Source of the DNA: an uncultured Pelagibacteraceae bacterium
GTDB lineage: Bacteria > Pseudomonadota > Alphaproteobacteria > Pelagibacterales > Pelagibacteraceae
Reading direction: 5' to 3'
DNA: 64,000 nt
NCBI GenBank assembly: GCA_902615435.1
Contig: CACMOZ010000006.1
Span: 1-64,000, forward strand
The notes under the pieces were generated by a model, which was given only the letters and a program-made list of their open reading frames with translations, ran no database searches and was not told where the DNA came from. Positions 600-23,910 of this stretch are shown piece by piece. Positions within the stretch are counted from its first letter, which is position 1. Each line of letters begins with the position of its first letter. The position numbers were made by a program, and so were the translations under genes.

Positions 600-1376
600 A
601 TGTTTTTAAAAAAATTTCTTTATACTAATTTTCCAAAACAGTACGGTATGTTTTATGGCTATTTAGCTTTACCTATTAAACTTTTTTTATTTAAATTAAA
701 TATCGAAATTTTTTTTGGGAACAAAGATCAAGATAAGTGGGTAGTGAAAGAGGTGATGAATTATAAAAAAAAAGGGTATTTTATTGATCTCGCTGCAACT
801 GATGGAATACATGAAAATAATACTTACTTTCTTGAAAAAAAATTAAATTGGGATGGTATTTGTATTGAGCCAAATAAAGATTTTTTTAACAAATTAAAAA
901 AAAATAGAAATGTAAGTTGTTTTTGTGAGGTTATTGACAATAAAGTCAAAAAAATTAACTTTTTCCCAAATAAAGGCATCGGAGGTATTGTCGGAGAAGA
1001 ATTTGATAATAATTTTAATAAAAGGGAAAAACTTTTAAAAAGAGCTTTTGAGAATAATAGAATTGAGAAAAGAGAAACAAAGACAATAAGGGATATTTTA
1101 TTGATAAGCAAAGCTCCTAAAGTAATCGATTATTTTAGCTTGGATGTTGAAGGAGCTGAAGAAAATATAATTAAAAACTTCCCTTTCAATGAATATAAAA
1201 TATTGAGCATGACAATTGAAAGACCTACTCCAAAAATAAATGAAATTTTGAAGAGCAATGATATGTTATTTGTAAAAAACTATAAAGTTGATAGTTTTTA
1301 TATAAATAAAATTCTTAAAGATAAAATTGATATTGAGTTTGAAAAATTTTCGCAACTGGATAAAAAAAAATGGTAG
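600..1376 (+). CDS. FkbM family methyltransferase
   Basis: GYFIDLAATDGIHENNTYFLEKKLNWDGICIEPN and YFSLDVEGAEENI motifs typical of FkbM methyltransferases. Confidence 0.85.
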   Translation: MFLKKFLYTNFPKQYGMFYGYLALPIKLFLFKLNIEIFFGNKDQDKWVVKEVMNYKKKGYFIDLAATDGIHENNTYFLEKKLNWDGICIEPNKDFFNKLKKNRNVSCFCEVIDNKVKKINFFPNKGIGGIVGEEFDNNFNKREKLLKRAFENNRIEKRETKTIRDILLISKAPKVIDYFSLDVEGAEENIIKNFPFNEYKILSMTIERPTPKINEILKSNDMLFVKNYKVDSFYINKILKDKIDIEFEKFSQLDKKKW

Positions 1377-2155
1377 AAAAAAATATTAAATCTTTACTTA
1401 AAAATGGATACTTTATTTATAACGTTAAAGATAAAAAAAAACTTAATTTCTTAAAAGATGATATCTTTAAAGAGTCAAAGAAAATTTTAAAAGGGAAGAT
1501 CAAAAAAAATTTTTTCAATGAATTTCATAATATAAATATTTCTAATCAAAAATTAAATGAATATAGACTTAAATTAATGAAAAAAGTAAACGTTGGAGAA
1601 AAATTTTCGAAAAAAGGCTATGAAATCTTCCAAGAAATAATTCAAAAAATTTTTGGTCTAGATATCGTCGCTCAAAAAAATGTAAATCTCGTTATACAAA
1701 AGCCAAACGACCCTTCTCAAATTTCTGTTCACCGAGACGCCCCACCTAATTCAGACTATGAGTTAGTAGTTTGGGTACCATTAGTAAATACTTTCAAATC
1801 AAAAAATATGTATATTTTAGATAAAAATAACACTTCTAAACTTATAAAAAAAATTAAAAAATTTTCAAATAACAATAAAAAAAGTGAAAAAATAATGGAT
1901 TTTTATTATTCATTTGCATTTAACAAATCTAAAAAACATAAACTTAGATTTGGGCAGGCCTTAATTTTTTGGACAGGTTTAATTCATTGTGTACCTGAAA
2001 ATCAAGAAAAAGAAACTCGATGGTCTCTTAACTTTAGATTTAAAAATACATTTTCACCCTATGGCACAAAAGGTTTTCCAGACTATTTTGCTGTAGCTAA
2101 TTCATCTCCAATTACTAAACTAGCTTTAGAGAAGAAAGGTTCCGACTTTAATTGA
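1370..2155 (+). CDS. Sporadic-carbohydrate-cluster type 2OG-Fe(II) oxygenase
   Basis: HRDAPPNSDYELVVWVPL and LIHCVPENQEKETRWSLNFRFKN motifs; sits next to a LIC12192-like protein. Confidence 0.65.
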   Translation: MVEKNIKSLLKNGYFIYNVKDKKKLNFLKDDIFKESKKILKGKIKKNFFNEFHNINISNQKLNEYRLKLMKKVNVGEKFSKKGYEIFQEIIQKIFGLDIVAQKNVNLVIQKPNDPSQISVHRDAPPNSDYELVVWVPLVNTFKSKNMYILDKNNTSKLIKKIKKFSNNNKKSEKIMDFYYSFAFNKSKKHKLRFGQALIFWTGLIHCVPENQEKETRWSLNFRFKNTFSPYGTKGFPDYFAVANSSPITKLALEKKGSDFN

Positions 2156-2538
2156 TGAAAAGCTATCATGCTTGGTTAGATATTGGAGCAGGTAAAGTAA
2201 TTACACAGCCTATGCAAAGAGTCCTATGTCAAAATTTTGCATCTAAATTGAATGGAAAAATAATATTTGAGTTAGGTGAAGATGTAGAGTTTAGTAAAGC
2301 AAAAATACAATTTAAAAAAATGTATACTACAGATTTAAAAGTTGATGGTTTTATTTTTTTAGGTCTTGAACAATTTATAAACCAAAAAAAACTTGAAATT
2401 AATTTAATAAAAGATGTTTTAAAAAAAGGATACGAACTTCACTATATCAGACAAAATTTATCTTTTTTTTCAATTACTGACTTCAAAAAAAGTGTAAATG
2501 ATTTGATTTTGTTCAGCGATTTGAATAAAAGTAACTAA
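2152..2538 (+). CDS. LIC12192-like sporadic carbohydrate cluster protein
   Basis: 128 aa protein overlapping the 2OG oxygenase by ATGA; size and context match the LIC12192 (TIGR04323-like) family; recognised from memory only. Confidence 0.5.
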   Translation: MMKSYHAWLDIGAGKVITQPMQRVLCQNFASKLNGKIIFELGEDVEFSKAKIQFKKMYTTDLKVDGFIFLGLEQFINQKKLEINLIKDVLKKGYELHYIRQNLSFFSITDFKKSVNDLILFSDLNKSN

Positions 2539-2549
2539 GAAAAATTGAA

Positions 2550-3674
2550 ATGAAAGAACACACAGATTTAATTCTTGATGGAACAAAAATAGCTTGGCAT
2601 AAAGATCGAATTGCTTCCTGGCAAAGAGGTGAAAAAATTGCCCCTATAACTATTGATATGGCTTTAACTAGAGCATGTAATTATTCCTGCTCGTTTTGTT
2701 ATGCAATGTTTCAAGAAAACGATAGAAAGATTATTACAAAAGATATAATTTATGGCTTTTTAGACGACTGTGCTGAAATTGGCGTAAAAGGTATAAGCTT
2801 TGTGTCAGATGGTGAGAGCACAATATCCCCAGTTTTTGCTGATGCTTGTAAAAGAGGTCATGAGCTTGGACTTTCAATGGCAGTTGGCACTAATGCCTTT
2901 GTTTTAACTAAATCCAAAGCTGAAGAAGTTTTACCATATTTAACTTATTTAAGAGTAAATTTTTCAGCTGGAGAAAAAAAAAGGTATTCAGAAATTATGG
3001 GAGTTAAAGAAAATCATTTTGAAAGAGTATGTCAAAACATCGAAGACATGATTGCAATTAAAAAAAGAGATAATTTAAAAGTTACTATTGGAATGCAAAT
3101 GGTATTAATGCCAGAAGATGAAGATCAAATTATACCATTAGCAAAACTTGGAAAAAAATTAAGGCCAGATTATTTAATAATAAAACATTGTACAGATAAT
3201 GAAGATGGTGATCTAGGAATAGATTATAATAAGTATGAGAAATTTTATGATAAACTTCGTGAAGCTGAGAAATATTCTGATGAAGACTATAAAGTTGTAG
3301 TCAAATGGTCTAAGATAAAAGACAAAGGTAATTCTGGAAGAAAATATCAAAGATGTTATGGAGCTCCATTTATGTTGCAAATGTCTGGCTCTGGTTTAGT
3401 AGCGCCTTGCGGAGCATTATTTAATGAAAAATATAAAAAATTTCACATTGGAAATATATGTGAAACAAGGTTTAAAGATATTTGGAACTCAGAAAGATAC
3501 TGGTCTGTAATGAATTACTTGTCATCAGAAAAGTTTAATGCTCAAAAAATGTGTGCCTCTTTATGTTTGCAACACAAAGTTAATGAAGCGCTAGACTCTC
3601 ATGTAAAAGGCGACATTGATTTATTAAATCAAGAGCTTCCGAAAAAAATACCTAAACATATTAATTTTATTTAA
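2550..3674 (+). CDS. Radical SAM / SPASM-domain protein
   Basis: CNYSCSFCY radical SAM cluster motif and C-terminal Cys-rich SPASM-like region (CYGAPF...CGALFNEKY...CASLCLQH). Confidence 0.85.
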   Translation: MKEHTDLILDGTKIAWHKDRIASWQRGEKIAPITIDMALTRACNYSCSFCYAMFQENDRKIITKDIIYGFLDDCAEIGVKGISFVSDGESTISPVFADACKRGHELGLSMAVGTNAFVLTKSKAEEVLPYLTYLRVNFSAGEKKRYSEIMGVKENHFERVCQNIEDMIAIKKRDNLKVTIGMQMVLMPEDEDQIIPLAKLGKKLRPDYLIIKHCTDNEDGDLGIDYNKYEKFYDKLREAEKYSDEDYKVVVKWSKIKDKGNSGRKYQRCYGAPFMLQMSGSGLVAPCGALFNEKYKKFHIGNICETRFKDIWNSERYWSVMNYLSSEKFNAQKMCASLCLQHKVNEALDSHVKGDIDLLNQELPKKIPKHINFI

Positions 3675-3691
3675 CTCTAGTTAATAAAAAA

Positions 3692-4573
3692 CTGAAAAAG
3701 AAATACAACAAAATCGTTTTGCTAGGGGCATCAGGCTTTCTTGGAAGCTATATCTTTAAAAGACTTTATTTGCAGGAAAAAAATATAATAAGACAAAGTA
3801 GAAAAAAAAGAAAAAATTTTATAAAAATTGATTTATTAAATAAACGAGAAGTTTTTAAAAAACTAAAAAAAATTAATCCTAAAATTATAATAAATACATC
3901 CGGTATGACTGATGTAGAAAAATGCGAAAATAGTTTTCACTTGGCTTTTAAGTCAAATGTAGTTTCAATTCAGAATGTTTGTGAATATGTTAAGACTTAC
4001 AATAAAAATTGTTATTTTATAAATATTTCTACAGATCATTTATATAACGGAAAAGGTCCTCACAAAGAAGAAAATATAAATTTAATTAATAATTACGCAC
4101 TCACAAAGTATTTAGGTGAGGTAATGTCCTCAAAGATAGATTCGATAAATCTTAGAGTAAATTTTTTTGGTAATAACTTTATTAAAAAAACAGGTTTAGT
4201 AAATTGGTTTATAAATGCATGTAAAAGAAAAAAAAAAATATTTTTATACAAAGATATATTATTTTCACCTCTTGAAATAAATTCCCTTACAGAAATAATT
4301 TCAAAAATAATTAATAAAAGGATTAGTGGTACTTATAATTTAGGATCAAATAATGGAATATCTAAAGCAGAATTTCTTAATTTGATTGGTAAAAATTTAA
4401 AACTTAATTTGAAATTTGCAAAGATCACAAGCTCCAGTAATATTAAGAACAGGGCAAAAAGACCTAATGATATGAGACTCAATAATAAGAAGTTTGAAAA
4501 AAAATTTAAGATTAAATTACCAAATATATATCAAGAAATTCAAAAATTTTGTATAAATTATAATAATTACTAA
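3692..4573 (+). CDS. dTDP-4-dehydrorhamnose reductase-like SDR (RmlD-like)
   Basis: Rossmann GASGFLGSY, NTSGMTDVEKCE, STDHLYNGKGPHKEE and YALTKYLGE motifs. The track starts at TTG 3719 inside the Rossmann strand; the reading frame supports upstream KKYNKIVLLGASG, with CTG at 3692 as a candidate start. Confidence 0.75.
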   Translation: MKKKYNKIVLLGASGFLGSYIFKRLYLQEKNIIRQSRKKRKNFIKIDLLNKREVFKKLKKINPKIIINTSGMTDVEKCENSFHLAFKSNVVSIQNVCEYVKTYNKNCYFINISTDHLYNGKGPHKEENINLINNYALTKYLGEVMSSKIDSINLRVNFFGNNFIKKTGLVNWFINACKRKKKIFLYKDILFSPLEINSLTEIISKIINKRISGTYNLGSNNGISKAEFLNLIGKNLKLNLKFAKITSSSNIKNRAKRPNDMRLNNKKFEKKFKIKLPNIYQEIQKFCINYNNY

Positions 4574-5640
4574 TGATAACATTTAAGATTAATAAAAAAA
4601 GAATTGGAGAAAACTATCCGACATATTTTATTGCTGATATAGCAGCAAATCATGACGGGTCATTAACGAGAGCAAAAAAACTTATAAAGCTCTCTGCTTT
4701 AGCGGGCGCCGATGCAGTCAAATTTCAACATTTTAAAGCTGAGACAATTGTTAGTGATTATGGCTTTAAAAAATTGGGTAAATTTTCTCACCAAAAAAAG
4801 TGGAAAAAGTCAGTTTTTGAGATTTATAAAGCTGCGAGTATAAATAATAAATGGAATTCAGAGTTATATAAAACTTGTAAAAAATACAAAATAGACTTTT
4901 TAACTGCACCCTATGATCTTGAATATATAGATCAAGTTTCAAAATTTATATGTGCCTATAAAATAGGATCTGGAGATATAACATGGCATGAGGCAGTGAA
5001 AAAAATCTCAAAAAAAAGAAAACCAGTTATATTAGCATCGGGTGCATCTAATATTGAAGATGTAAAAAAAGCAATCTCCTTAATATATAAGTACAATAAA
5101 AAAATTGTTTTAATGCAATGCAATACCAACTACACAGCAAGTGAAGAAAATTATAAATTTATTAATTTGAATGCCTTAAACACTTTTAAAAAGATATTTA
5201 AAAATAAAATAGTTTTAGGTCTAAGCGATCATACTTTTGGAAGTGAAACTGTTTTGGGCGCAATATCTTTAGGTGCTAGAGTTGTTGAAAAACACTTTAC
5301 AGATGACAACAATAGAAATGGTCCTGACCACAAATTTTCAATGAACCCAAATACTTGGAGGGAAATGATTGATTCATCAAGAAGATTAGAAAAATCTTTT
5401 GGAAATGGAAAAAAAATAGTTGAAAAAAATGAGATGGATACTGTAATAATTCAAAGAAGATCTTTAAGAGCATCAAAAAAAATCGCTAAAAATACAGTTT
5501 TGAAACATAAACACATAATAGCGTTAAGACCGTGCCCAAAAAATGCAATTTCTCCTGATCAGATTGAAAAAGTTTTAGGAAAAAAAACTCTTAAAAATAT
5601 AAATTTTCATGAACATTTTACATGGAAAAAAATAAGATAA
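4573..5640 (+). CDS. N-acetylneuraminate synthase family protein with C-terminal SAF domain (NeuB paralogue 1)
   Basis: IADIAANHDGSLTRAKKLI, AVKFQHFKAE, GLSDHT, VVEKHFTDD, and SAF-like RRSLRASKKI. Confidence 0.85.
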   Translation: MITFKINKKRIGENYPTYFIADIAANHDGSLTRAKKLIKLSALAGADAVKFQHFKAETIVSDYGFKKLGKFSHQKKWKKSVFEIYKAASINNKWNSELYKTCKKYKIDFLTAPYDLEYIDQVSKFICAYKIGSGDITWHEAVKKISKKRKPVILASGASNIEDVKKAISLIYKYNKKIVLMQCNTNYTASEENYKFINLNALNTFKKIFKNKIVLGLSDHTFGSETVLGAISLGARVVEKHFTDDNNRNGPDHKFSMNPNTWREMIDSSRRLEKSFGNGKKIVEKNEMDTVIIQRRSLRASKKIAKNTVLKHKHIIALRPCPKNAISPDQIEKVLGKKTLKNINFHEHFTWKKIR

Positions 5641-6263
5641 TAATTATACCAACTTTTAATGAACTTAGATCTATTAAAAGAGTCATTAGAGATTGCCCAA
5701 ATAGTTGGAACATATTAGTAGTAGATGATGCAAGCAGTGACGGTACTAATTTATGGTTAAGAAAAAAAAAAATTTCTTTTTTATTAAATAAAAAAAATCA
5801 AGGTTATGAAAGATCTTTAATTAGAGGTTTTAAGCAAGTTATTAAAAATAAAAAAATAAGATATTTAGCAACTATGGACGCAGATGGAGAACATAATCCA
5901 AAATACTTAAAAAAAATGATAAACCATATATCAAAAAAAAATTTAGATATGGTAATTTCTGAGAGAAATAGCTACAACAGATTGAGCGAGGCTTTAGTGG
6001 GAAAAATATTTAAATTAAAGTATGGTATAAAAGATCCTTTATCTGGATATAAAGTTTATAAAGTTTCTGCACTTAAAAAAATTATAAAAAATATTAAAAC
6101 AAATTCTTTTTTAGTAGATATAATTTGTAAATTTAACTCTTTGTCAAAAAAATTAGGAGTGATAAATTCTCAAAGTAGACAGAGAATTTTTGGCCGTCCT
6201 AAAGTAGGTTTTAATCTTTTCGTCAATATAAAGATTATTCTTTTACTAAGATTAATATTTTAA
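5622..6263 (+). CDS. Glycosyltransferase family 2 (DPM1-like)
   Basis: IIIIPTFNELRSIKRVI...VVDDASSDGT...ATMDADGEHNP. Confidence 0.85.
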   Translation: MEKNKIIIIPTFNELRSIKRVIRDCPNSWNILVVDDASSDGTNLWLRKKKISFLLNKKNQGYERSLIRGFKQVIKNKKIRYLATMDADGEHNPKYLKKMINHISKKNLDMVISERNSYNRLSEALVGKIFKLKYGIKDPLSGYKVYKVSALKKIIKNIKTNSFLVDIICKFNSLSKKLGVINSQSRQRIFGRPKVGFNLFVNIKIILLLRLIF

Positions 6264-6279
6264 AATTAAAAAAAACTAT

Positions 6280-7284
6280 ATGTTTGATAAAAAAACTATA
6301 TTTATTACCGGGGGCACGGGCTCTTTTGGAAAAGCATTTACCAGAAAAATTTTAGAAGATTTCAACCCACTAAGAATTGTTATATTCAGCCGAGACGAGT
6401 TCAAACAACATTTGATGATGAAAGACCCATTTTTTAGCAAGCACCAAGATAAGATAAGGTATTTGATAGGAGATGTAAGGGATAAAGAAAGATTAAAATT
6501 AGCTTTTCAAATGGAAATAGACATCTTAATTCATGCTGCAGCTTTAAAACAAGTAGAGACATCTGAGTACAACCCTTTTGAAACTGTAAAAACAAATGTT
6601 TTAGGAGCTCAAAATTTAATTGAATTAGCAATACAAAAAAAAATTAAAAAAATAATTGCTCTAAGTACTGACAAAGCTGCATCTCCAACAAACTTATACG
6701 GAGCAACAAAATTGGTTTCAGATAAATTATTTGTAAATGCAAATAATTATGGCTCTATTTCAAAATTTGCAGTTGTTAGATATGGTAATGTATTCAATAG
6801 CAGAGGATCTGTGGTTGAAGTTTTTAGATCAATGAAGGAAAAAAACATTTTCAAAGTTACAGATAAAAAAATGACCAGATTCAACATTACTTTGGACCAG
6901 AGCATTGAGTTCGTCATAAAGTCCCTAAAAAATATGTTTGGAGGTGAAATATTTGTTCCAAAAATACCATCTTATAAATTAACTGATCTAGTGAAGGCAA
7001 TTTCAAACAATGGAAAAATTAAAATTGTAGGAATAAGGCCTGGAGAAAAACTTCATGAAGAAATGGTAACCTCTTCTGACTCCCTTAATTGCTATGAACT
7101 AAATGACCAATTCATCATATTGCCCTTATCTTTTAAATTTTTAAAATGGAACATTAAAAATTTTTTAAATAAATACAAAACCTCAAAACCAAAAAAATGT
7201 AGAGAAGGCTTCTCTTACAATAGTGTAGAAAATAAAAATTTCCTTAGAATAAAAGAAATTCAAAAATTACTTAAAAAATACTAA
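6280..7284 (+). CDS. pseB: UDP-N-acetylglucosamine 4,6-dehydratase (PseB/FlaA1 family)
   Basis: ITGGTGSFGKAF, IFSRDEFKQ, HAAALKQVETSEYNPFE, LSTDKAASPTNLYGATKL. Confidence 0.85.
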   Translation: MFDKKTIFITGGTGSFGKAFTRKILEDFNPLRIVIFSRDEFKQHLMMKDPFFSKHQDKIRYLIGDVRDKERLKLAFQMEIDILIHAAALKQVETSEYNPFETVKTNVLGAQNLIELAIQKKIKKIIALSTDKAASPTNLYGATKLVSDKLFVNANNYGSISKFAVVRYGNVFNSRGSVVEVFRSMKEKNIFKVTDKKMTRFNITLDQSIEFVIKSLKNMFGGEIFVPKIPSYKLTDLVKAISNNGKIKIVGIRPGEKLHEEMVTSSDSLNCYELNDQFIILPLSFKFLKWNIKNFLNKYKTSKPKKCREGFSYNSVENKNFLRIKEIQKLLKKY

Positions 7285-7302
7285 TCAAAAAATTATATTC
7301 TA

Positions 7303-7965
7303 ATGATCAGCAAAAATGATATAGGAATTTTTTCTATTGCAAGACTTTCAAGCAAAAGACTAAAAAAAAAAATGATTAGAAAATTTTCTAATACAACTTT
7401 AACTGATATAATTTTATCTAAACTATCTAAACTTGGTAACAATGCATTTTTTGCAGGGCATGAGAACATCTTTAAAAAAAAAAGCATTAAACATAAAGTT
7501 AGATTTGTACAAAGAAGCAAGTTATCTTCTATTTCCAATAATTCTTACGCACAAATATTCTCTTTTTTAAAAAAAGAAAAATTTAATTATTTACTTTTAA
7601 TTAATCCATGCATGCCTAACCTTAGAATATCTACTATAAAAAAATTTATTAAAAAAGTTCAAAAACTGAATGGCCCTGCTTTTACAGTTTTTGAAGAAAA
7701 AAATTATTTTTTAAACAAAAAAAATATTCCGCTTAATTTCAAAAAATTAAAAAAAAATGAAACATTAGATACTAAAAAAGTAAAATCGATAAAATCATTT
7801 GCTCATGTTTTTTATTTTTTTGAAAAAAAATATTTTTTAAAGAATGGGCACTATTGGAATTGGAGTAAGCTAAATTACGTTGAACTACAAAAAACGAACG
7901 AATTTTTAGATATAGATAATCTTAAAGATTTTAAAGAAGCTGAATTAGTTTGGAAAAAATTCTAA
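7303..7965 (+). CDS. Divergent acylneuraminate cytidylyltransferase-like protein
   Basis: IFSIARLSSKRLKKKMI N-terminus, LINPCMPNLR and C-terminal DIDNLKDFKEAE cytidylyltransferase features. Confidence 0.6.
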   Translation: MISKNDIGIFSIARLSSKRLKKKMIRKFSNTTLTDIILSKLSKLGNNAFFAGHENIFKKKSIKHKVRFVQRSKLSSISNNSYAQIFSFLKKEKFNYLLLINPCMPNLRISTIKKFIKKVQKLNGPAFTVFEEKNYFLNKKNIPLNFKKLKKNETLDTKKVKSIKSFAHVFYFFEKKYFLKNGHYWNWSKLNYVELQKTNEFLDIDNLKDFKEAELVWKKF

Positions 7966-10958: not shown

Positions 10959-11954
10959 ATGAAAAAAATTTTAGTTACTGGATCTGAAGGGTTTATAGGA
11001 TCACACTTAGTTGAAACATTATTGAAAAAAAAATACAAAGTAAAAGCCTTAGTTCAATATAATTCATTTAATTCTATCGGATGGATTAATGACTTAATTA
11101 ATAAGGATAGTAAAAACTTGCAGATTTTTTTTGGCGATATAAGAGATATGTCTTTTATAGATAAAATTATGCAAGATTGTGATGCTGTTTTTAATTTAGC
11201 AGCGTTGATTGGTATTCCTTACTCATATCATGCACCAACTTCTTATTTTGAAACCAATGTTAAAGGGACTTTAAATATATTAGAAGCAGCAAAAAAAAAT
11301 AAAATTAAAAAAGTAATTATTACATCAACTAGTGAGGTTTATGGGACAGGACAGTATTTGCCAATTGATGAAAAACATCCTTTAGTAGGTCAATCACCAT
11401 ATTCGGCTTCAAAAATTTCAGCAGATCAATTAGCAATGTCTTATTATTATTCGTTTGATCTACCAGTTACAATTATACGACCTTTTAATACTTATGGGCC
11501 CAGACAGTCATTAAGAGCAATAATACCTACGATTATACAACAAATGTTAATAAACAAAAAAAGAGAGATAAATTTAGGCAATGTAAAAACTACACGAGAT
11601 TTTAGTTACGTGTCCGATACCGTCGATGGCTTTGTTAAATCTATAAATTCAAAATCTGATGGTGAAATTATTAATCTTGGTTCAGGTTTCGAAATTAGTA
11701 TTGAAGAACTTGTAAGAGAGATCGGACACATATTAGGAGAAAAAGTAATCATAAAAAAAGATAAAAAAAGATTTAGACCAAAAAATAGCGAGGTAGAACG
11801 ATTAAAATCTTCTAATATAAAAGCTAAAAAAATATTAAACTGGAGTCCTAAATTTACTGGAAAAAAAGGTTTAAGAGAGGGAATCAAAAAAACATTAACT
11901 TGGTTTTTAAAAAATAAACAATTTTTACCTAAAAAAAACTCTTATAATATTTAA
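10959..11954 (+). CDS. legB: NAD-dependent 4,6-dehydratase LegB
   Basis: VTGSEGFIGSHLVE, ALVQYNSFNSIGW, AALIGIPYSYHAP, TSTSEVYGT, YSASKISADQ: LegB-specific patterns. Confidence 0.85.
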   Translation: MKKILVTGSEGFIGSHLVETLLKKKYKVKALVQYNSFNSIGWINDLINKDSKNLQIFFGDIRDMSFIDKIMQDCDAVFNLAALIGIPYSYHAPTSYFETNVKGTLNILEAAKKNKIKKVIITSTSEVYGTGQYLPIDEKHPLVGQSPYSASKISADQLAMSYYYSFDLPVTIIRPFNTYGPRQSLRAIIPTIIQQMLINKKREINLGNVKTTRDFSYVSDTVDGFVKSINSKSDGEIINLGSGFEISIEELVREIGHILGEKVIIKKDKKRFRPKNSEVERLKSSNIKAKKILNWSPKFTGKKGLREGIKKTLTWFLKNKQFLPKKNSYNI

Positions 11955-11958
11955 TTAA

Positions 11959-12864
11959 GTGAAGTCCCAAAAAAATTTTTTTTTAAGCATTGGTTATTTT
12001 GCAGATGGTAATTGGGCTTATCAAAATTTAATAAAAATATTTAATGATAAGTCAATTAATATAAAGTTTATTTGTTTAAGAAAAAAACCTGATAAAAAAA
12101 TTAAAATTTTATCAAAAAAAAAAAATATACCGTGCTTCAAATTTGAGAATGTAAATGACGGAAATTCAATAGAAAAAATTAAAAGTTACAAATGTGATTA
12201 TCTTATCTCAATGTCATACGATCAAATTTTTGGAAAAAAAATATTATATTTAATGAAAAATAAGATTATTAATTGTCATGCTGGCTTATTACCATTTTAT
12301 AGGGGAAGAAATATTTTAAATTGGGCTTTAGTCAATGGAGAAAAATACTTTGGTGTAACAACACATTTAATTAACGATAAGATTGATGAAGGTAATATAA
12401 TTAAACAAATAAGAATCAAAATTAATAAATTTGACACTTATGAAACTTTATTAAAAAAAGCAGAAATAAACTGCTCAAATTTACTTTATTCGACTATAAA
12501 AATAATTCAGAAAGGAAAATTTTCTACATTTTCTCAAAAAAAAATTTGTCGAAAAGGGTCATATTTTAGAAAAAGAAATTCAGAAGATGAAAAAATAATT
12601 TGGTCAAAAAGTGCTAAAGAAATTTATAATTTGATAAGAGGAATATCTTATCCTGGACCAAACAGTAAAACAATTATAAATAAAAGAGTACTTAGAATAA
12701 AAAAATCAAAAATCATTAAATTCAAAAATACAAAAAAATTTAAAGTTGGAGAAATTATTAAAAAAACAAAAAATCACTTTATAGTTAACACTGGTTCTGG
12801 AAAAATAAAAATATTAGATTGGTCTCCAAAATTGAAATTAAAAACAGGTCAAGTTTTTTTATGA
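11959..12864 (+). CDS. Formyltransferase-domain protein (sugar N-formyltransferase candidate)
   Basis: NCHAGLLPFYRGRNILNWALVNGEKYFGVTTHLINDKIDEGNII matches the 10-formyl-THF-dependent formyltransferase core; GTG start; located inside the legionaminate gene block. Confidence 0.8.
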   Translation: MKSQKNFFLSIGYFADGNWAYQNLIKIFNDKSINIKFICLRKKPDKKIKILSKKKNIPCFKFENVNDGNSIEKIKSYKCDYLISMSYDQIFGKKILYLMKNKIINCHAGLLPFYRGRNILNWALVNGEKYFGVTTHLINDKIDEGNIIKQIRIKINKFDTYETLLKKAEINCSNLLYSTIKIIQKGKFSTFSQKKICRKGSYFRKRNSEDEKIIWSKSAKEIYNLIRGISYPGPNSKTIINKRVLRIKKSKIIKFKNTKKFKVGEIIKKTKNHFIVNTGSGKIKILDWSPKLKLKTGQVFL

Positions 12865-13859
12865 AAACAATCATCATAGCTGAGGCAGGCGTTAATCATA
12901 ATGGAAATTTTAGAAATGCTAAAAAATTAATTTTAGAGGCTAAAAAAAGTGGAGCTGATATTGTAAAATTTCAAAAATTTAAAGCTGAAAAATTAGTAAC
13001 AAAAAAAGCTAAATTAGCTAATTATCAAAGAAAAAATTACAAAAATATTTCACAATATCAAATGCTTAAGAAGCTTGAACTAAAAGACTCTGACTATAAA
13101 AAACTTTATCAATATTCAAAAAAAATAAAAATTAAGTTTCTCTGCTCATGTTTTGACAAAGAATCGCTTGCTTTTCTTCAGTTTTACAAAAATGATTTTA
13201 TTAAAATTCCATCAGGCGAAATAAATAATTTTCCACTTTTAAAGTATGCAGGGAATTTAAAAAATAAAGTCATATTATCCTCTGGTATGTCAACAATTGA
13301 TGAAATAACTTTAGCAATTAATACAATTATAAAATCTGGGACCCCAAAAAAAAATATATATTTATTGCACTGTAATTCTGATTATCCGACAAATATTAAG
13401 GATGTAAATTTAAGAGCATTTGATCAATTAAAAGAAAAGTTTGGTTTAAAACTAGGTTATTCTGATCACACAACAAGTCAAGAAGTTCCAATAATTGCGG
13501 TAGCTATGGGAGCTAAAATTATAGAAAAACATTTTACATTAAACAAAAACTTGAAAGGTCCAGATCATGCGGCAAGCTTCAATCCAAGAGAATTTAAAAC
13601 CCTAGTTGAGAATATCCGAAAAACAGAAATCATTTTAGGAAAAAATAAAAAAATAGTTACTGCTAGCGAAAAGAGAAATAAATTATCAGTGCGTAAATCT
13701 ATAGTTGCTAAAAGAGCTATAAAGAAGGGGGATAAGTTCAGTACTAATAATATTACCATAAAAAGACCAGGCAACGGTATTTCCCCGTTAAAATTTTTTA
13801 AAATAATTGGTAAAAAGTCTAAATATTCATTTAAACAAGACGATCTAATTAAAGTATGA
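12861..13859 (+). CDS. legI: N,N'-diacetyllegionaminate synthase / NeuB family (paralogue 2)
   Basis: IIAEAGVNHNGNFRNAKKL, DIVKFQKFKAEKLVT, GLKLGYSDHT, IIEKHFTLNKNLKGPDHAASF, SVRKSIVAK; ATG at 12861 (track ORF extended upstream). Confidence 0.88.
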   Translation: MKTIIIAEAGVNHNGNFRNAKKLILEAKKSGADIVKFQKFKAEKLVTKKAKLANYQRKNYKNISQYQMLKKLELKDSDYKKLYQYSKKIKIKFLCSCFDKESLAFLQFYKNDFIKIPSGEINNFPLLKYAGNLKNKVILSSGMSTIDEITLAINTIIKSGTPKKNIYLLHCNSDYPTNIKDVNLRAFDQLKEKFGLKLGYSDHTTSQEVPIIAVAMGAKIIEKHFTLNKNLKGPDHAASFNPREFKTLVENIRKTEIILGKNKKIVTASEKRNKLSVRKSIVAKRAIKKGDKFSTNNITIKRPGNGISPLKFFKIIGKKSKYSFKQDDLIKV

Positions 13860-14995
13860 AAAAAATTGCAATAGTAACTAGTACTAGAGCAGATTATTCA
13901 ATCTTAAAAAATTTAATCTCGCATCTTAGAGAAAATAAAAAAATGAATTTGAAGTTAATAATCAGTGGAACCCATTTAAACAAAAAATATGGATATACAA
14001 TTAAAGAAATAGATAATCTAAATGCTATAAATCATAAAAAAATTGACATTAATATAAAAACCTCATCAGAGGAAAATATCTCAAAAAGTTTTAGTTTAGG
14101 TGTAAAAAAATTTTCAAGTTATCTAAAAAAAAACAAAACTGATCTTGTCATCTTACTAGGTGATAGATATGAAATATTAGCTTTTGCAATATCTTGTTTA
14201 ATTTCAAGAATTCCTATTGCCCACATTCATGGAGGTGAAATAACACAAAGTGTAATTGACGATTCAATTAGACACTCAATTACAAAAATGTCTCAAATTC
14301 ACTTTGTAGCAAATAAAATTTACAAAAAAAGAGTAGCTCAACTTGGAGAAGAAGACTCACGTATATTTATAGTTGGAGGTCTTGGTGCTTATAATTTGTC
14401 TATAGAGAAATTTCAATCTAAAAAGAAAATTTTAAAAAAAATAGGTTTACCATATTTAAAAAAGTATATTTTAATTTGCTTCCACCCCGAAACATTAAAT
14501 AAAAATTCAAATTTAAAAAATTTTAAAAAAATTTTGAATGCTCTTAAGTCTTTTAAAGACCAATTTTTTTTATTTACAATGCCTAATTCTGACCAAGAAA
14601 GTGATTATATTTATCAAGAAATTAAAAAATTTATTTCGAATTCTCCAAATTCAAAATTAATTAAATCTCTTGGAAATAAATATTACAGTTTTCTAAAACA
14701 CTCAGAATTAATTATAGGTAATTCTTCGAGCGGAGTTCTTGAAGCTCCATCCGCTAAAGTACCTTCGTTAAATATTGGCAATAGGCAAACCGGTAGAGTA
14801 ATGGCTAATTCTGTTCTCAATTGTGATTTTAATGAAAAAAACATAAAGAAAAAAATTAGCTATCTATTAAAAATGAAAAAAAAATTCTCCTACAAAAACC
14901 CTTATTATAATGGAAAAACACCATTAAAGATTGTAAAAATTTTAGAAAATTTAAATTTTAATAATTTAATCAATAAAAAGTTTAGGGACATCTGA
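13856..14995 (+). CDS. legG: UDP-N-acetylglucosamine 2-epimerase (hydrolysing), LegG/NeuC
   Basis: TSTRADYSIL, LGDRYEILA, IAHIHGGEIT, IRHSITKMS, GNSSSGVLEAPS. Confidence 0.88.
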   Translation: MKKIAIVTSTRADYSILKNLISHLRENKKMNLKLIISGTHLNKKYGYTIKEIDNLNAINHKKIDINIKTSSEENISKSFSLGVKKFSSYLKKNKTDLVILLGDRYEILAFAISCLISRIPIAHIHGGEITQSVIDDSIRHSITKMSQIHFVANKIYKKRVAQLGEEDSRIFIVGGLGAYNLSIEKFQSKKKILKKIGLPYLKKYILICFHPETLNKNSNLKNFKKILNALKSFKDQFFLFTMPNSDQESDYIYQEIKKFISNSPNSKLIKSLGNKYYSFLKHSELIIGNSSSGVLEAPSAKVPSLNIGNRQTGRVMANSVLNCDFNEKNIKKKISYLLKMKKKFSYKNPYYNGKTPLKIVKILENLNFNNLINKKFRDI

Positions 14996-14997
14996 CC

Positions 14998-16053
14998 ATG
15001 AAAAATCCATTAATTTCATCCAATATTTCAATATCTCAATCAATGAAAAAACTCAGTGAAACTGGACAAAGATGTTTAGTAATAGTTGATATTAAGAAGA
15101 AATTGTTAGGAACCCTTACTGATGGGGATATAAGAAGAAACATTTTATCTGGATATGAATTATCTGATAGTATTAAAAAAATTTATAATAAAAAACCAAT
15201 TTACTTCTTCGAAAAAAATTTTTCTGTTGAAAATGCTAAAAAAATTTTTATTAGTAAGAATATAAATCTAATTCCTATTATCAATTCTCAGAGGAAAGTA
15301 GTTAATTGCCTTACCTGGGATGATGTATTCGAAAAACCCTCCAAAAAAAGTATTATGCCTACTTTAAGCACCGTTATTATGGCAGGCGGGAAGGGCATAA
15401 GAATGAAACCTTTCACAGATGTTCTTCCAAAACCTTTAGTACCAATTAATAATAAACCAATCATAGAACATATAATAGAAAATTTTCTTAACTTTAATCA
15501 AAATAAGTTTTTTTTAACAATTAGTCAAAAAAGCAAAATTTTAAAATATTATTTTAAAGATAAAAATACGAAAAGTTACAAAATTAATTTTGTTACAGAA
15601 AAAAAACCTTTAGGGACAATTGGAGGTTTAAAACTGCTTGAACAGAAACTTACAAGTAATTTCTTTTTAGCTAATTGCGATATTTTGGTTGATGCAAACT
15701 ATCAAGATATCTTTGAACTTCATAAATCTAGGAATAATGATGTAACAATTGTAGCCTCTATAAAAGAGTTTAATATTCCTTATGGAGTATGTGAAATTGG
15801 AAAAAAAGGTTTACTTAAAAATATTAAAGAAAAACCTAATTTTCAATATCTAGTAAATACAGGTTTGTATTTGGTTAATAAGAAAATAATTAATTTGATA
15901 CCAAAAAACAAATACTTTGATTTTACAGATTTGATTAATGTACTTCTAAAAAAGAAGAAAAAAATTGGGGTTTTTCCAATCGCCGATCAAAAATGGATAG
16001 ATGTTGGTCAATGGGACATTTTTGAAAAAAATTTAAAAAAAATTAAAAATTAA
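14998..16053 (+). CDS. CBS-domain nucleotidyltransferase (PtmE-like, GDP-sugar forming candidate)
   Basis: N-terminal CBS pair (GTLTDGDIRRNIL) followed by VIMAGGKGIRMKPFTDVLPKPLVPI. Confidence 0.82.
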   Translation: MKNPLISSNISISQSMKKLSETGQRCLVIVDIKKKLLGTLTDGDIRRNILSGYELSDSIKKIYNKKPIYFFEKNFSVENAKKIFISKNINLIPIINSQRKVVNCLTWDDVFEKPSKKSIMPTLSTVIMAGGKGIRMKPFTDVLPKPLVPINNKPIIEHIIENFLNFNQNKFFLTISQKSKILKYYFKDKNTKSYKINFVTEKKPLGTIGGLKLLEQKLTSNFFLANCDILVDANYQDIFELHKSRNNDVTIVASIKEFNIPYGVCEIGKKGLLKNIKEKPNFQYLVNTGLYLVNKKIINLIPKNKYFDFTDLINVLLKKKKKIGVFPIADQKWIDVGQWDIFEKNLKKIKN

Positions 16054-16754
16054 TGTACCGTGGTAAAAAAATAGTAGCATTAATTCCAGCAAGAGCCGGA
16101 TCGAAAGGGTTAAAAAATAAAAATATAAAAATTTTTAAAAAAAAACCACTTATATACTGGACAATTAAAGCAGCGCAAACTTCCAAATATATTGATGATA
16201 TTATTGTAACTACTGACTCTGAAAAAATATTAAATTTATCTAAAAAATTTAAAATTAAAAATTTAATCAAAAGGCCAAAAAAATTAGCTTTAGATAATAC
16301 TGCAATCAAAGAAGTAATTTTTCACAGTTTTAAATGGATAAAAAAAAAACTAACAAATAATTATGAGTATTTTATTTTGTTGCAACCTACCTCTCCATTA
16401 AGAAACAAAGACCATATTAACAAATTTGTAAGAACTTTTTTTTCAAAAAAAACAAAAAATAGTGAAACCATGATTTCCGTTGCTGCTGCTCCGGTAAAAG
16501 CTAGTTGGTTAATGAGAAAGAGAGGAAAATATTTAAATTTTCTTAAAAAAAATAAGAAAAATTATTTAAGACAAGATTTAGAAAAATTTTATTTACCAAA
16601 CGGAGCTATCTATTTTTCAAAAATTACAACCTTCAAAGGATCTTTTTATGGTAATAAAACAATGTTTTATGAAATGGATATCAAGAGCTCAATTGATATT
16701 GACAATTTACATGATTTTAAAAAAGGTGTAAAAATAAAAAATATTTTGGAGTAA
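16053..16754 (+). CDS. legF: CMP-nonulosonate cytidylyltransferase (LegF/NeuA)
   Basis: VALIPARAGSKGLKNKNI, IIVTTDSEKI, LLQPTSPLRNKDHI, IDIDNLHDF. Confidence 0.88.
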   Translation: MYRGKKIVALIPARAGSKGLKNKNIKIFKKKPLIYWTIKAAQTSKYIDDIIVTTDSEKILNLSKKFKIKNLIKRPKKLALDNTAIKEVIFHSFKWIKKKLTNNYEYFILLQPTSPLRNKDHINKFVRTFFSKKTKNSETMISVAAAPVKASWLMRKRGKYLNFLKKNKKNYLRQDLEKFYLPNGAIYFSKITTFKGSFYGNKTMFYEMDIKSSIDIDNLHDFKKGVKIKNILE

Positions 16755-19562: not shown

Positions 19563-21350
19563 ATGTATTTTTTAGATAAAAGATCTAAAAATGAAGAACT
19601 TTTGATTTGTAAAAGTTTTTTATTATCGAGAAAAATAACTGAAAAATACGCAAAAAATTTTAATAAGAGTAAATTTTATTCATTTCTCACAAAAAATTTT
19701 TCAAACAAACTTGTTATATCTTATTTTAAGAAAAAATTTTTTTATGAGAACATTAATGTTTTTAATCAAATTATAATAAATGAACATGATAAAAAATATA
19801 ATCGTAAAATAGTTTATAATAGCTCAGAACAAAAAAAGATTTTAAAAACTTTAAACAATAATTTACTTAGTAAGTATAAAATAGATACAATTAATCAAAA
19901 TAAAAATATCAAAAAATTTTTTTTTGGGTTAAAGCCATCATATTATAAATTTTTAAAACTAATTAATTTCAAAAAAAGAAAAATAAATTTTAAAAGACCA
20001 AAAATAGCTATTTCTTTAGTTGAGGGCTTAGACCCACGTTTTAAATCAGATGTATTTTGGGATCCTCAGATTAAAAATAAAAAAGATATTTTAATCTATA
20101 TAGAATCACCATATTTACTAAGAAAATTTAAACAACATATTCCATATATTGAAAAATTAAAAAAAAAAGATGTTGTTATTATTAATCTCTGGGAAGAAGA
20201 GTCTTATAAAAATAACTTTGAAGATCTTTTACAGAAATTAAAAAATATAAAAACCAAAACCTTTTTTGATTATCACCTAAAAAATATTTCAATAGAACTT
20301 ATTGAAAGAGTAAATTTTTGGATAAATTTTTTTAATAAGTACCATGTAAAAATTCATATAGACTCTGACGATCTGAAATTTGATAATATCGCCAAACAAA
20401 TAGCATTAGAACAAGTTGATGGATGTTCAGTAGGTAAAATTAAATCTTATATCACACATAGTTGCCCATTATTTTTTGAGTACTATCATAATGATATTTT
20501 TTTTTGTTGGGGAAAAAGATTAGTGAAAAATATAAAAAAAATGAAAAAGAATGGGATGATGACTAATATTAAAAATCTTGTTATCAGTGGCAATCTTAAT
20601 CAAATAGTTAATGAAGAAATCATAGAAAAAATTTCAAAAATTAAAAGAAATTTTAAGCGATGTGGAGTTACAAAAAAAATTTTAATTTTAGATACTTCAC
20701 ATGATGATAATAAAAATCATAATGAACAATTGATGATGACAAAAAAGGTTAATTACTTTTATAGTAAGATTGTTGATTTTGCCTTAAATAATAAAAAGAT
20801 AGGTCTAATTATAAAACCAAAAAAAAGTCTCGAGTATTTAGACAACGATACAAAGAAAAAGATGCATAGCTTAATTAAAATGAAACAAATCTATGTTGAG
20901 AACAATTTTAAAGTTCCAGTAAAAAACTTTGCTAAAATAAGTGATTTTTCAATATCACTTACTGTAGATAGTTTACCATCGGCAATGTTAGAAGCTTTAT
21001 GTGAAAATAAGAAGCTTAGATGTATCTTTTACGACTATCCAAGATGTTCTAAAAAAGAAAAAATTTTTAGCTGGGGAAACAAAAAAGTTTTTTTTAACAA
21101 TTTAGATGAAATGATAGAAACAGTAGAAAAAGAGATATTTATACCGAGATCAAAAATTGGTATTTTGCCTAAAACTTTTGTGAGTTCTTTAAACCCTTTT
21201 AAACCAATTTTAATTAATGATAAAGCTAAGTTCTACATACAAAATTTGTTGAAACAATTTAAAAAACTCAAGAAAAAAGATAAATCTATTAAAAAAGTAA
21301 ATCATTTGTTTAAAAAAAAATATGGAAACAATTTTATTGTAAAAATCTAA
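19563..21350 (+). CDS. Hypothetical protein, probable surface-carbohydrate glycosyltransferase
   Basis: 595 aa ORF; C-terminal ISDFSISLTVDSLPSAMLEAL resembles a GT-B acceptor/donor loop; no family confidently recognised. Confidence 0.45.
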   Translation: MYFLDKRSKNEELLICKSFLLSRKITEKYAKNFNKSKFYSFLTKNFSNKLVISYFKKKFFYENINVFNQIIINEHDKKYNRKIVYNSSEQKKILKTLNNNLLSKYKIDTINQNKNIKKFFFGLKPSYYKFLKLINFKKRKINFKRPKIAISLVEGLDPRFKSDVFWDPQIKNKKDILIYIESPYLLRKFKQHIPYIEKLKKKDVVIINLWEEESYKNNFEDLLQKLKNIKTKTFFDYHLKNISIELIERVNFWINFFNKYHVKIHIDSDDLKFDNIAKQIALEQVDGCSVGKIKSYITHSCPLFFEYYHNDIFFCWGKRLVKNIKKMKKNGMMTNIKNLVISGNLNQIVNEEIIEKISKIKRNFKRCGVTKKILILDTSHDDNKNHNEQLMMTKKVNYFYSKIVDFALNNKKIGLIIKPKKSLEYLDNDTKKKMHSLIKMKQIYVENNFKVPVKNFAKISDFSISLTVDSLPSAMLEALCENKKLRCIFYDYPRCSKKEKIFSWGNKKVFFNNLDEMIETVEKEIFIPRSKIGILPKTFVSSLNPFKPILINDKAKFYIQNLLKQFKKLKKKDKSIKKVNHLFKKKYGNNFIVKI

Positions 21351-22537
21351 TGAATTTTGAAAAAAAAAATTTAATCAAACTTTATAATTTACCTAAAGAA
21401 ATAAAATTTTGTAAAAATTGCACTATCTCAAATCAAAGACCGAGAATAACTTTTGATAAAAACGGGATTTGTTCTGCATGCAATTTTAGTAAAATTAAAA
21501 AAAAAATTAACTGGGAAGAAAGAAAATTGAAATTTAAAAAACTTTTAGATAGATTTAGAAAAAAGGATGGAAATTTTGACGTTTTAGTGCCATGCAGCGG
21601 AGGTAAAGATGGCAGTATGGTCGCTCACAAACTAAAGTATGAGTATGGTATGAATCCCTTGTGCGTTACTTGGGCTCCACTCAAATATACTGAAATTGGG
21701 AAAAAAAACTTGGATAATTTCATTAATAGTGGATTCGATCATATACTAGGAACTCCCAATCCAACCGTAACAAGAAAATTAACAGAGGCATCATTTAAAG
21801 AAGTTGGAGATCCTTTTCAGCCGTTTATTTATGGCCAAGTTAATTTTCCACTCAATATGGCAGTAAAATACAATATTCCTCTGATAATGTATGGTGAAAA
21901 CCAAGAGGCTGAGTATGGAGGAGATACAACCAAAGCAGAAAAGCCTACAAGAGATGTAGAAGATTTTGCCAAATATTATTTTTCAGGAAAACAGCTAGAC
22001 TCGTGGAAAAAATATGGAATTTCAAATAACGACTTAAAGTTTTTTTCTGGTCCTGAGATCGAAAGTATAAAATCCTCCAAAATTGAAATTCATTTTTTTG
22101 GTTTTTATCATTTTTGGGATCCACAAGAAAATTACTACTATTGTCAAAAAAATACTGGTCTTTCACCAAACGAAGAAAGAACTGAAGGAACTTATTCTAA
22201 ATATGCAAGTTTAGATGATAAGCTTGACGGTTTTCACTTTTACTTGGCTTATATAAAATTTGGAATTGGAAGAGCGACATCTGATAGCGCTCATGAAATA
22301 AGAGATAACAAAATAGATAGAGACGAAGGCATCAGTCTTGTAAAAAAATATGATCATGAATTCCCTAAAAAATACTATAAGGAATTCTTAGAATATTGCT
22401 CTATTACATCCGAAGAATTCGATAAAATCATAGACAGTTGGAGATCAGACCATCTTTGGAGAAAAGGAAATGACGATAAGTGGGTATTAAAGAATCCTAT
22501 TTGGATAAACAATGAGAAAAGTTCGAATAATTCCTAG
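21350..22537 (+). CDS. N-acetyl sugar amidotransferase (PseA/WbpG-like)
   Basis: FCKNCTISNQRPRITFDKNGICSAC, VPCSGGKDGSMVAHKLKYEYGMNPLCVTW. Confidence 0.88.
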   Translation: MNFEKKNLIKLYNLPKEIKFCKNCTISNQRPRITFDKNGICSACNFSKIKKKINWEERKLKFKKLLDRFRKKDGNFDVLVPCSGGKDGSMVAHKLKYEYGMNPLCVTWAPLKYTEIGKKNLDNFINSGFDHILGTPNPTVTRKLTEASFKEVGDPFQPFIYGQVNFPLNMAVKYNIPLIMYGENQEAEYGGDTTKAEKPTRDVEDFAKYYFSGKQLDSWKKYGISNNDLKFFSGPEIESIKSSKIEIHFFGFYHFWDPQENYYYCQKNTGLSPNEERTEGTYSKYASLDDKLDGFHFYLAYIKFGIGRATSDSAHEIRDNKIDRDEGISLVKKYDHEFPKKYYKEFLEYCSITSEEFDKIIDSWRSDHLWRKGNDDKWVLKNPIWINNEKSSNNS

Positions 22538-23282
22538 ATTAGATATTAAAGGTCCAAATTTAATAAAATCCGTCCAATTTGAAGGGCTTAGAGTTTTAGG
22601 GTCACCAAATGATTTTGCAAAAAGGTATTACGATGAAGGCGCGGATGAATTACTATATATGGATGTGGTTGCCAGCCTTTATGGTAGAAACAGTTTAAAC
22701 GACTTAATATCCAAAGCAGCTAAAAATGTATTTATTCCAATTACTGTAGGAGGGGGAATAAGAACAGTTGAAGATGCAATTCAAATTTTCAAATCTGGCG
22801 CTGATAAAGTAGCAATTAATACCGCTGCAGTAAAAAATCCTAATTTAATATCTGACTTAGTACAACGTTTTGGATCTCAAAGTATAGTAGTTTCTATTGA
22901 GGCAAAAAAAATAAAAGATAGATGTTGGAGGGTTTATACAGATTATGGCAGAGAAAAAAGTGAGCTTGATTTATTTAAATGGATAAAGATTTGCGTTGAA
23001 AAAGGAGCTGGTGAAATAATAATTACATCGATTGACAGAGAGGGAACTGGAAAAGGCTTTGAAACCGAAATACTTGAGAGTCTTGGTAATATAGAAATAC
23101 CAATAATATTTTGTGGTGGAATGGGAAAGTTAAATGATATTATTGAAGTCTTAAAGTTTGGTAATGTTGATGCCATATCAATGGCAGACTCAATTCATTA
23201 TGGCAAATTAAATATTTCACAGATAAGAGAATTTGCATTGTCAAAAAATTTAAACTTAAGGAATTTTTCAAATGAAAACTAA
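22512..23282 (+). CDS. AglZ/HisF2 family acetamidino modification protein
   Basis: HisF-like: IIPRLDIKGPNLIKSVQFEGLRVLG, VGGGIRTVEDA, FCGGMGKLNDI; next to HisH and amidotransferase. Confidence 0.85.
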   Translation: MRKVRIIPRLDIKGPNLIKSVQFEGLRVLGSPNDFAKRYYDEGADELLYMDVVASLYGRNSLNDLISKAAKNVFIPITVGGGIRTVEDAIQIFKSGADKVAINTAAVKNPNLISDLVQRFGSQSIVVSIEAKKIKDRCWRVYTDYGREKSELDLFKWIKICVEKGAGEIIITSIDREGTGKGFETEILESLGNIEIPIIFCGGMGKLNDIIEVLKFGNVDAISMADSIHYGKLNISQIREFALSKNLNLRNFSNEN

Positions 23283-23910
23283 AACTTTGATAATTGATTA
23301 CGGTATAGGAAACCTTTTAAGTTTAACCAGGGCGTTGGAATATGTAGGTTCCGAAGTAATTATCTCAGATGATCATAGAAAAATCTTTGACGCATCACAT
23401 ATTATATTACCTGGTGTGGGTGCATTCAAAAAAGCTGTAGAGGTGTTGAAAGAAAAAAAATTAGACGAGATAATTCAAAAAACTTTAGAAAAAAAAAGAA
23501 ATTTTTTAGGAATTTGTCTAGGAATGCAAATTTTGTTAAAAAAAAGTTACGAACATGGAGAAACCAAAGGGCTTGGAATTTTTGATGGTGAAGTGAAATC
23601 TATAAAAACTTTCAAAAATCCAATTGATATAAAAATTCCAAATATTGGCTGGTACAATTTGATTCCCGAATATGAAAAGAAGGAATTTAATATTTTTAAA
23701 AATTTAAATGATAAAGACAATTTTTATTTTGTTCATTCTTTTCTCACAGATATTAAAAATAGTAATGAAAAAAATTTTTCAATTCAATATTCTAATATAA
23801 AAATACCAGCAATAATTTCTAAAAATAATATATTTGGTTTTCAATTTCATCCTGAAAAAAGTGGAAAAGCAGGATTAAAACTTTTAAAAAACTTTACTAA
23901 TTTGGAGTGA
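23272..23910 (+). CDS. HisH-like glutamine amidotransferase (HisH2)
   Basis: IDYGIGNLLSL, LPGVGAF, FLGICLGMQILL (GATase Cys), FGFQFHPEKS. Confidence 0.88.
   Translation: MKTKTLIIDYGIGNLLSLTRALEYVGSEVIISDDHRKIFDASHIILPGVGAFKKAVEVLKEKKLDEIIQKTLEKKRNFLGICLGMQILLKKSYEHGETKGLGIFDGEVKSIKTFKNPIDIKIPNIGWYNLIPEYEKKEFNIFKNLNDKDNFYFVHSFLTDIKNSNEKNFSIQYSNIKIPAIISKNNIFGFQFHPEKSGKAGLKLLKNFTNLE

What the first reader, a model, noticed from the sequence alone, without database searches (positions are those of the whole stretch)
1370..7965. Second, non-canonical nonulosonate-like module fused to a 'sporadic carbohydrate cluster'
A second NeuB with SAF domain, a PseB-type dehydratase and a divergent CMP-transferase are present, but no adjacent PseC, PseH or PseG. 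Instead there are a 2OG-Fe oxygenase, a LIC12192-like protein, a radical SAM/SPASM enzyme and an RmlD-like reductase. The precursor and product of this NeuB are not predictable from known pathways, so this is a candidate for an undescribed sugar acid.
Basis: inference. Interest (0 to 1): 0.75.

Follow-up and report, generated by a model that had tools for sequence, protein, structure and literature searches.

The report
Uncharacterised sialic-acid-like sugar gene module
A marine SAR11-type bacterium carries a five-gene kit for a sialic-acid-like surface sugar that skips the usual nitrogen-adding steps; the same kit recurs in distantly related bacteria, archaea and phages, so its still unidentified product can be predicted and tested.

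Summary
(1) RmlD-like reductase, NeuB+SAF, an unlisted GT2 enzyme, PseB and a divergent CMP-transferase (3671-7965) are a conserved nonulosonate module. The NeuB has its own clade. In 66 loci from many phyla an RmlD-family reductase lies near it in 53 (43 immediately upstream), PseB in 48, a CMP-transferase in 52; about 20 viral contigs carry it too. PseG reaches cut-off in 1 of 35 genomes with this NeuB, PseC in 2. (2) The 2OG-oxygenase, LIC12192-like and radical-SAM genes (1370-3674) are neighbours in the same variable island, not partners: oxygenase and LIC12192-like genes occur in 1 of 92 other NeuB1 loci; SAR11 co-occurrence is at chance. Most likely PseB's 4-keto sugar is reduced rather than aminated, so NeuB makes a 3,5,9-trideoxy nonulosonate with a 7-hydroxyl. 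The chemical precedent is fusaminic acid; orthology to its producer was not found. The enzyme freeing the sugar from UDP is unidentified in 24 of 35 genomes; stereochemistry is open. All function is inferred. New variant of a known kind.

The parts
3671..4573 (+). RmlD-family (PF04321) SDR reductase; frame open upstream of the TTG at 3719, true start codon unclear
   Evidence: Y-x3-K and GxxGxxG invariant in the 58 aligned members
4573..5640 (+). NeuB1: nonulosonate synthase with SAF domain, own clade
   Evidence: model mean pLDDT 92.4, TM 0.89 to N. meningitidis NeuB 1xuu
5622..6263 (+). GT2 / polyprenyl-phosphate-sugar-synthase-like enzyme, overlaps NeuB1 by 19 bp
   Evidence: homologue directly downstream of NeuB1 in most SAR11 loci and 19 of 66 loci overall
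6280..7284 (+). PseB-type UDP-GlcNAc 4,6-dehydratase
   Evidence: 433.7 vs 407.75; in 48 of 66 NeuB1 loci
7303..7965 (+). divergent CMP-nonulosonate synthetase-like protein
   Evidence: weak; 49 bits to NeuA-type profile
1370..2155 (+). TIGR04324 2OG-Fe(II) oxygenase; neighbouring module, not part of the NeuB1 core
2152..2538 (+). LIC12192-like protein, partner of the 2OG oxygenase
2550..3674 (+). radical SAM/SPASM enzyme; homologues elsewhere lie without this NeuB
600..1376 (+). FkbM-family methyltransferase; 58% homologue beside the oxygenase/LIC12192 pair in L046
3..599 (+). truncated PhyH / TIGR04324-like oxygenase at contig end
10959..16754 (+). separate legionaminate-type set: LegB-like, formyltransferase, NeuB, NeuC, CBS-nucleotidyltransferase, NeuA (LegC-like at 23907-25070)

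Best explanation
The five genes at 3671-7965 make and activate one nonulosonic acid. PseB converts UDP-GlcNAc to a UDP-4-keto-6-deoxy-HexNAc. The RmlD-family reductase reduces the 4-keto group to a hydroxyl, in place of PseC amination and PseH acetylation. A still unidentified enzyme releases the 6-deoxy-HexNAc. NeuB1 condenses it with phosphoenolpyruvate to a 5-acetamido-3,5,9-trideoxy-nonulosonic acid with a free 7-hydroxyl, the cytidylyltransferase forms the CMP-sugar, and the product goes into a surface glycan. The oxygenase, LIC12192-like and radical-SAM genes next door belong to other modules of the same variable island. Shown: gene identities, NeuB1 clade, conserved neighbourhood, absence of PseC/PseG. 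Inferred: every catalytic step, the product, the role of GT2. Stereochemistry is open: fusaminic/Pse-like if PseB inverts C5, 9-deoxy-Neu-like if it retains C5 and C2 is epimerised.
For: NeuB1-clade loci from SAR11, SAR86, Psychrobacter, Neptuniibacter, Bdellovibrio-like, Anaerolineae, Bacteroidota, Firmicutes, Methanolobus and others. Of 66 loci with at least 3 genes on each side: RmlD-family reductase 53 (43 at position -1), PseB 48, CMP-transferase 52, DegT aminotransferase only 12, NeuC 2. Reductase immediately upstream in 47/79 NeuB1 vs 0/16 other NeuB genes (Fisher 7e-6). Psychrobacter L097 and Oxalobacteraceae L104 carry the same five functions in a row: PseB, NeuA, RmlD, NeuB1, GT2. 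PseG over cut-off in 1/35 and PseC in 2/35 NeuB1 genomes; in the Psychrobacter genome the PseG lies on the contig of a second NeuB, not of NeuB1. IMG/VR contigs carry PseB-RmlD-NeuB1-GNAT or RmlD-NeuB1-GNAT, one soon after a phage tail-fibre J gene. Reductase catalytic residues invariant in all 58 aligned. A natural nonulosonate with 7-OH and 9-deoxy exists beside 6-deoxy-L-AltNAc in the F. nucleatum ATCC 25586 O-chain (PMC13014188, PMC7371886).
Against: No UDP-sugar hydrolase: 24 of 35 NeuB1 genomes reach cut-off for neither PseG nor NeuC. NeuB1 has Gly where PseI-type enzymes have Phe at the C2-specificity position of PMC7371886, which fits a manno-type C2 that PseB alone would not give. 13 of 66 loci have no RmlD-family gene within six genes, and 12 have a DegT aminotransferase. 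Fusobacteriaceae mostly lack NeuB1 (2 of 62 genomes), so the fusaminate link is chemical, not by orthology. The window's CMP-transferase is weakly recognised. Loci are not phylogenetically independent (many Anaerolineae).
Confidence: 0.58

Rival explanations
1. PseB and the RmlD-like reductase make a separate UDP-6-deoxy-HexNAc for the polymer (such as 6-deoxy-L-AltNAc), while NeuB1 uses another free sugar; the genes sit together only because both sugars go into one glycan.
For: No hydrolase links the UDP-sugar to NeuB1. NeuB1+GT2 alone lie between housekeeping genes in two SAR11 genomes, although one of these has PseB on another contig. F. nucleatum O-chain contains both 6-deoxy-L-AltNAc and a trideoxy nonulosonate (PMC13014188).
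Against: Reductase immediately upstream of NeuB1 in 47/79 loci against 0/16 for other NeuB genes; phage contigs move RmlD-NeuB1-GNAT as a unit without PseB.
Confidence: 0.22
2. An ordinary pseudaminate pathway whose PseC, PseH and PseG lie in the missing DNA upstream of the contig.
For: The window starts at a contig end and the genome is 86.75% complete; PseB passes its cut-off.
Against: The same NeuB1 module lacks PseG in 34/35 and PseC in 33/35 genomes; NeuB1 is below the PseI cut-off and lacks the PseI-type Phe.
Confidence: 0.1
3. One reading: 2OG oxygenase, LIC12192-like protein, radical SAM enzyme and NeuB together make one new sugar acid.
For: Adjacent and co-directional here; one other SAR11 contig (L094) has the oxygenase/LIC12192 pair about 4 kb upstream of PseB, on the opposite strand.
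Against: 1 of 92 NeuB1 loci; SAR11 co-occurrence 2 observed vs 1.4 expected.
Confidence: 0.06

Closest known systems
Pseudaminic acid pathway (PseB-C-H-G-I-F)
   Same: PseB-type first step, NeuB-family synthase with SAF domain, CMP activation
   Different: No PseC or PseG in almost all carriers; reductase instead; synthase in a separate clade with Gly not Phe at the C2 position
[quoted passage not shown]
   Same: Predicted product class: 9-deoxy, 7-hydroxy, one nitrogen at C5
   Different: No biosynthetic genes assigned in the papers read; NeuB1 found in only 2 of 62 Fusobacteriaceae genomes
sps legionaminic acid pathway of Bacillus subtilis (PMC7439481)
   Same: UDP-linked, PseB-like first enzyme (SpsM), NeuB with SAF (SpsE), SpsF-type CMP transferase
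   Different: Uses aminotransferase SpsC, acetyltransferase SpsD and hydrolase SpsG; no RmlD-type step in the nonulosonate route
Legionaminate-type set in the same window (10959-16754, 23907)
   Same: NeuB + CMP transferase in the same island
   Different: Complete with NeuC and LegC-like aminotransferase; its NeuB passes the NeuB equivalog cut-off
Sporadic carbohydrate cluster families TIGR04323/TIGR04324
   Same: Neighbours at 1370-2538
   Different: A separate two-gene unit, not a NeuB1 partner

Membership tests
NeuB/PseI nonulosonate synthases | NeuB TIM barrel plus SAF domain, PF03102 + PF08666 | tested here: met
   fold match to 1xuu TM 0.89
NeuB/PseI nonulosonate synthases | catalytic Lys, His pair and SAF Arg retained | tested here: met
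   K50, K130, H220, H241, R319 invariant; role assignment from knowledge of N. meningitidis NeuB
Pseudaminate synthase PseI | TIGR03586 equivalog cut-off | tested here: not met
   228.8 vs 340.25 bits
Pseudaminate synthase PseI | Phe at the C2-specificity position | tested here: not met
   Gly in window NeuB1 (position from PMC7371886)
Pseudaminate pathway | PseC and PseG in the genome | tested here: not met
   none over cut-off in G000, which is incomplete
Pseudaminate pathway | PseH in the genome | not tested
   no family search made; none seen adjacent
Fusaminic acid biosynthesis | 7-hydroxy 3,5,9-trideoxy nonulosonate product | not testable with these tools
   needs chemistry
Fusaminic acid biosynthesis | synthase orthologous to that of the known producer | tested here: inconclusive
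   NeuB1 in 2 of 62 unnamed Fusobacteriaceae genomes; F. nucleatum itself could not be identified among them
TIGR04324 SpoChoClust_2 | curated cut-off | tested here: met
   193.1 vs 150 for 1370-2155
TIGR04323 LIC12192 | curated cut-off | tested here: not met
   18.4 vs 55; homology supported by synteny and alignment

The most novel reading that the evidence does not exclude
PseB-reductase-NeuB1 is a fourth, widespread nonulosonate pathway beside Neu, Leg and Pse, shared by bacteria, archaea and phages, making 7-hydroxy-9-deoxy nonulosonates and using an unknown sugar-releasing enzyme.
Probability: 0.45. Interest if true: 0.75.

Novelty: new variant of a known kind. Interest (0 to 1): 0.55.

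Why it matters
In the one NCBI-annotated record examined this synthase is only called 'N-acetylneuraminate synthase family protein'. If the prediction holds, many environmental genomes now read as sialic-acid producers make a different sugar, the orphan fusaminate-type chemistry gains a candidate route, and phages are seen carrying a surface-sugar pathway that could change host receptors.

Tried and rejected
Joint pathway with the oxygenase/LIC12192/radical-SAM genes: rejected on co-occurrence. NeuB1+GT2 as a stand-alone pathway (two SAR11 genomes with the pair between lysC/ubiG-like and argJ/secA genes): weakened because G674 carries a PseB on another contig. Fusaminate by orthology: not supported. 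Hydrolase in the conserved neighbourhood: none found; viral cassettes instead carry a PIG-L deacetylase and a formyltransferase. Fold of the LIC12192-like protein: model too poor (pLDDT 57.7), fold search without significant match. Literature search found no paper with 'sporadic carbohydrate cluster' or LIC12192 in the open library.

Full report
What is there. The window lies at the start of a contig of a 1.04 Mb, 86.75% complete genome; gene content and the named relatives found point to SAR11/Pelagibacterales (inference). Co-directional genes run from a truncated oxygenase at 3 through FkbM (600), a TIGR04324 2OG oxygenase (1370), a LIC12192-like gene (2152), radical SAM/SPASM (2550), RmlD-like (frame open from 3671), NeuB+SAF (4573), GT2 (5622), PseB (6280), a divergent cytidylyltransferase (7303) and a TIGR04372 glycosyltransferase (7950). 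RmlD, NeuB and GT2 overlap by a few bases and PseB and the transferase follow within 20 bp, as in one operon. A second, legionaminate-type set follows at 10959-16754 with LegC-like at 23907.

Two modules, not one. The TIGR04324 oxygenase and the LIC12192-like gene are adjacent in many SAR11 islands that lack this NeuB. Their homologues lie near NeuB1 in 1 of 92 other NeuB1 loci (L094). In 297 SAR11 genomes 25 have TIGR04324 and 17 have NeuB1; 2 have both, against 1.4 expected. The radical SAM enzyme has close homologues without NeuB1 in L044 (64%), G008 (50%) and two viral contigs.

The NeuB1 module. NeuB1-clade proteins were collected from 297 SAR11 genomes, the 80 best loci of a scan of GTDB genomes and IMG/VR. 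The clade groups together with support 1.0 and shows FIADxAANHDG, KIGSGDITW and MQCNTNYT; one scan pattern was MQCNTNY, so its invariance among the scanned loci is partly by construction, but the SAR11 proteins found by whole-protein search have it too. Of 66 loci with at least three genes on each side, 53 have an RmlD-family reductase (43 immediately upstream), 48 PseB, 52 a CMP-transferase and 50 a GT2, GT1 or GNAT gene immediately downstream; 12 have a DegT aminotransferase and 2 a NeuC. The reductase is immediately upstream of 47/79 NeuB1 genes and 0/16 other NeuB genes from the same collection. Distances of reductase, PseB, GT2 and the CTP1-type transferase track NeuB1 distances, the NeuA-type transferase does not. 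These counts are not corrected for relatedness; many loci are Anaerolineae.

What it lacks. In 35 genomes with NeuB1, PseG passes its cut-off in one and PseC in two. The exception with both, Psychrobacter G730, has PseG on a contig with a second NeuB, apart from NeuB1. NeuC passes in ten, so 24 have neither known sugar-releasing enzyme. Several genomes are incomplete.

How it most likely works. PseB gives a UDP-4-keto-6-deoxy-HexNAc; a reductase with intact Y-x3-K placed beside NeuB1 would give a 4-hydroxyl, hence a 7-hydroxyl in the nonulosonate. Such a sugar is known: the F. nucleatum ATCC 25586 O-chain holds 6-deoxy-L-AltNAc and 5-acetimidoylamino-3,5,9-trideoxy-gluco-nonulosonic acid (PMC13014188). 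NeuB1 itself is in only 2 of 62 Fusobacteriaceae genomes, so this is precedent, not membership. The Gly at the C2-specificity position (PMC7371886) argues against a PseI-like substrate and leaves a 9-deoxy-Neu-type product possible; PseB-like SpsM of B. subtilis is a retaining enzyme (PMC7439481), so C5 inversion by the window's PseB cannot be taken for granted. The window also has a WbuX/WbuZ/HisH set of the kind that makes acetamidino groups, found near NeuB1 in L086 and L090 as well.

Phage carriage. About 20 IMG/VR contigs carry NeuB1, often as PseB-RmlD-NeuB1-GNAT followed by a PIG-L deacetylase and a formyltransferase. In L210 RmlD-NeuB1-GNAT lies just downstream of a tail-fibre J gene. 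Phage-borne nonulosonate-modifying genes are known in Acinetobacter prophages (PMC12053666).

Verdict. Everything about function is inferred from sequence and neighbourhood.

Noticed in passing
L192-L214 (IMG/VR viral contigs): Viral contigs carry the PseB-RmlD-NeuB1-GNAT cassette, often with a second short NeuB, PIG-L deacetylase, formyltransferase and NeuA; L210 has RmlD-NeuB1-GNAT just downstream of a tail-fibre J gene.
   Followed up: partly
2152-2538 and homologues in alignment A3: LIC12192-like proteins match the serine-recombinase (resolvase) catalytic domain in a profile comparison (hhalign probability 76.8; seven other families under 1), though comparison with PinE alone gave nothing and the structure model was too poor to test it.
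   Followed up: partly
21350-23910: WbuX (361.8 vs 203.2 bits), WbuZ-like and HisH genes: an acetamidino-forming set in the same island, also near NeuB1 in L086 and L090.
   Followed up: partly
L080 9397-11090, L089 9057-10754: NeuB1+GT2 pair sits alone between housekeeping genes (lysC, ubiG-like, DUF1178 / argJ, secA) in two SAR11 genomes; in L089 NeuB1 is interrupted by a stop.
   Followed up: partly
L094, L096, L115, L121, L150: An aldo/keto reductase and a cytidylyltransferase-aminotransferase class III fusion recur beside the NeuB1 module; the domain make-up recalls phage EpaA (cytidylyltransferase + aldo/keto reductase), which with EpaB 8-epimerises pseudaminic acid (PMC12053666).
   Followed up: no
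L043 3976-9600: A TIGR04324-like domain is part of a 1874-residue open frame in one SAR11 genome.
   Followed up: no
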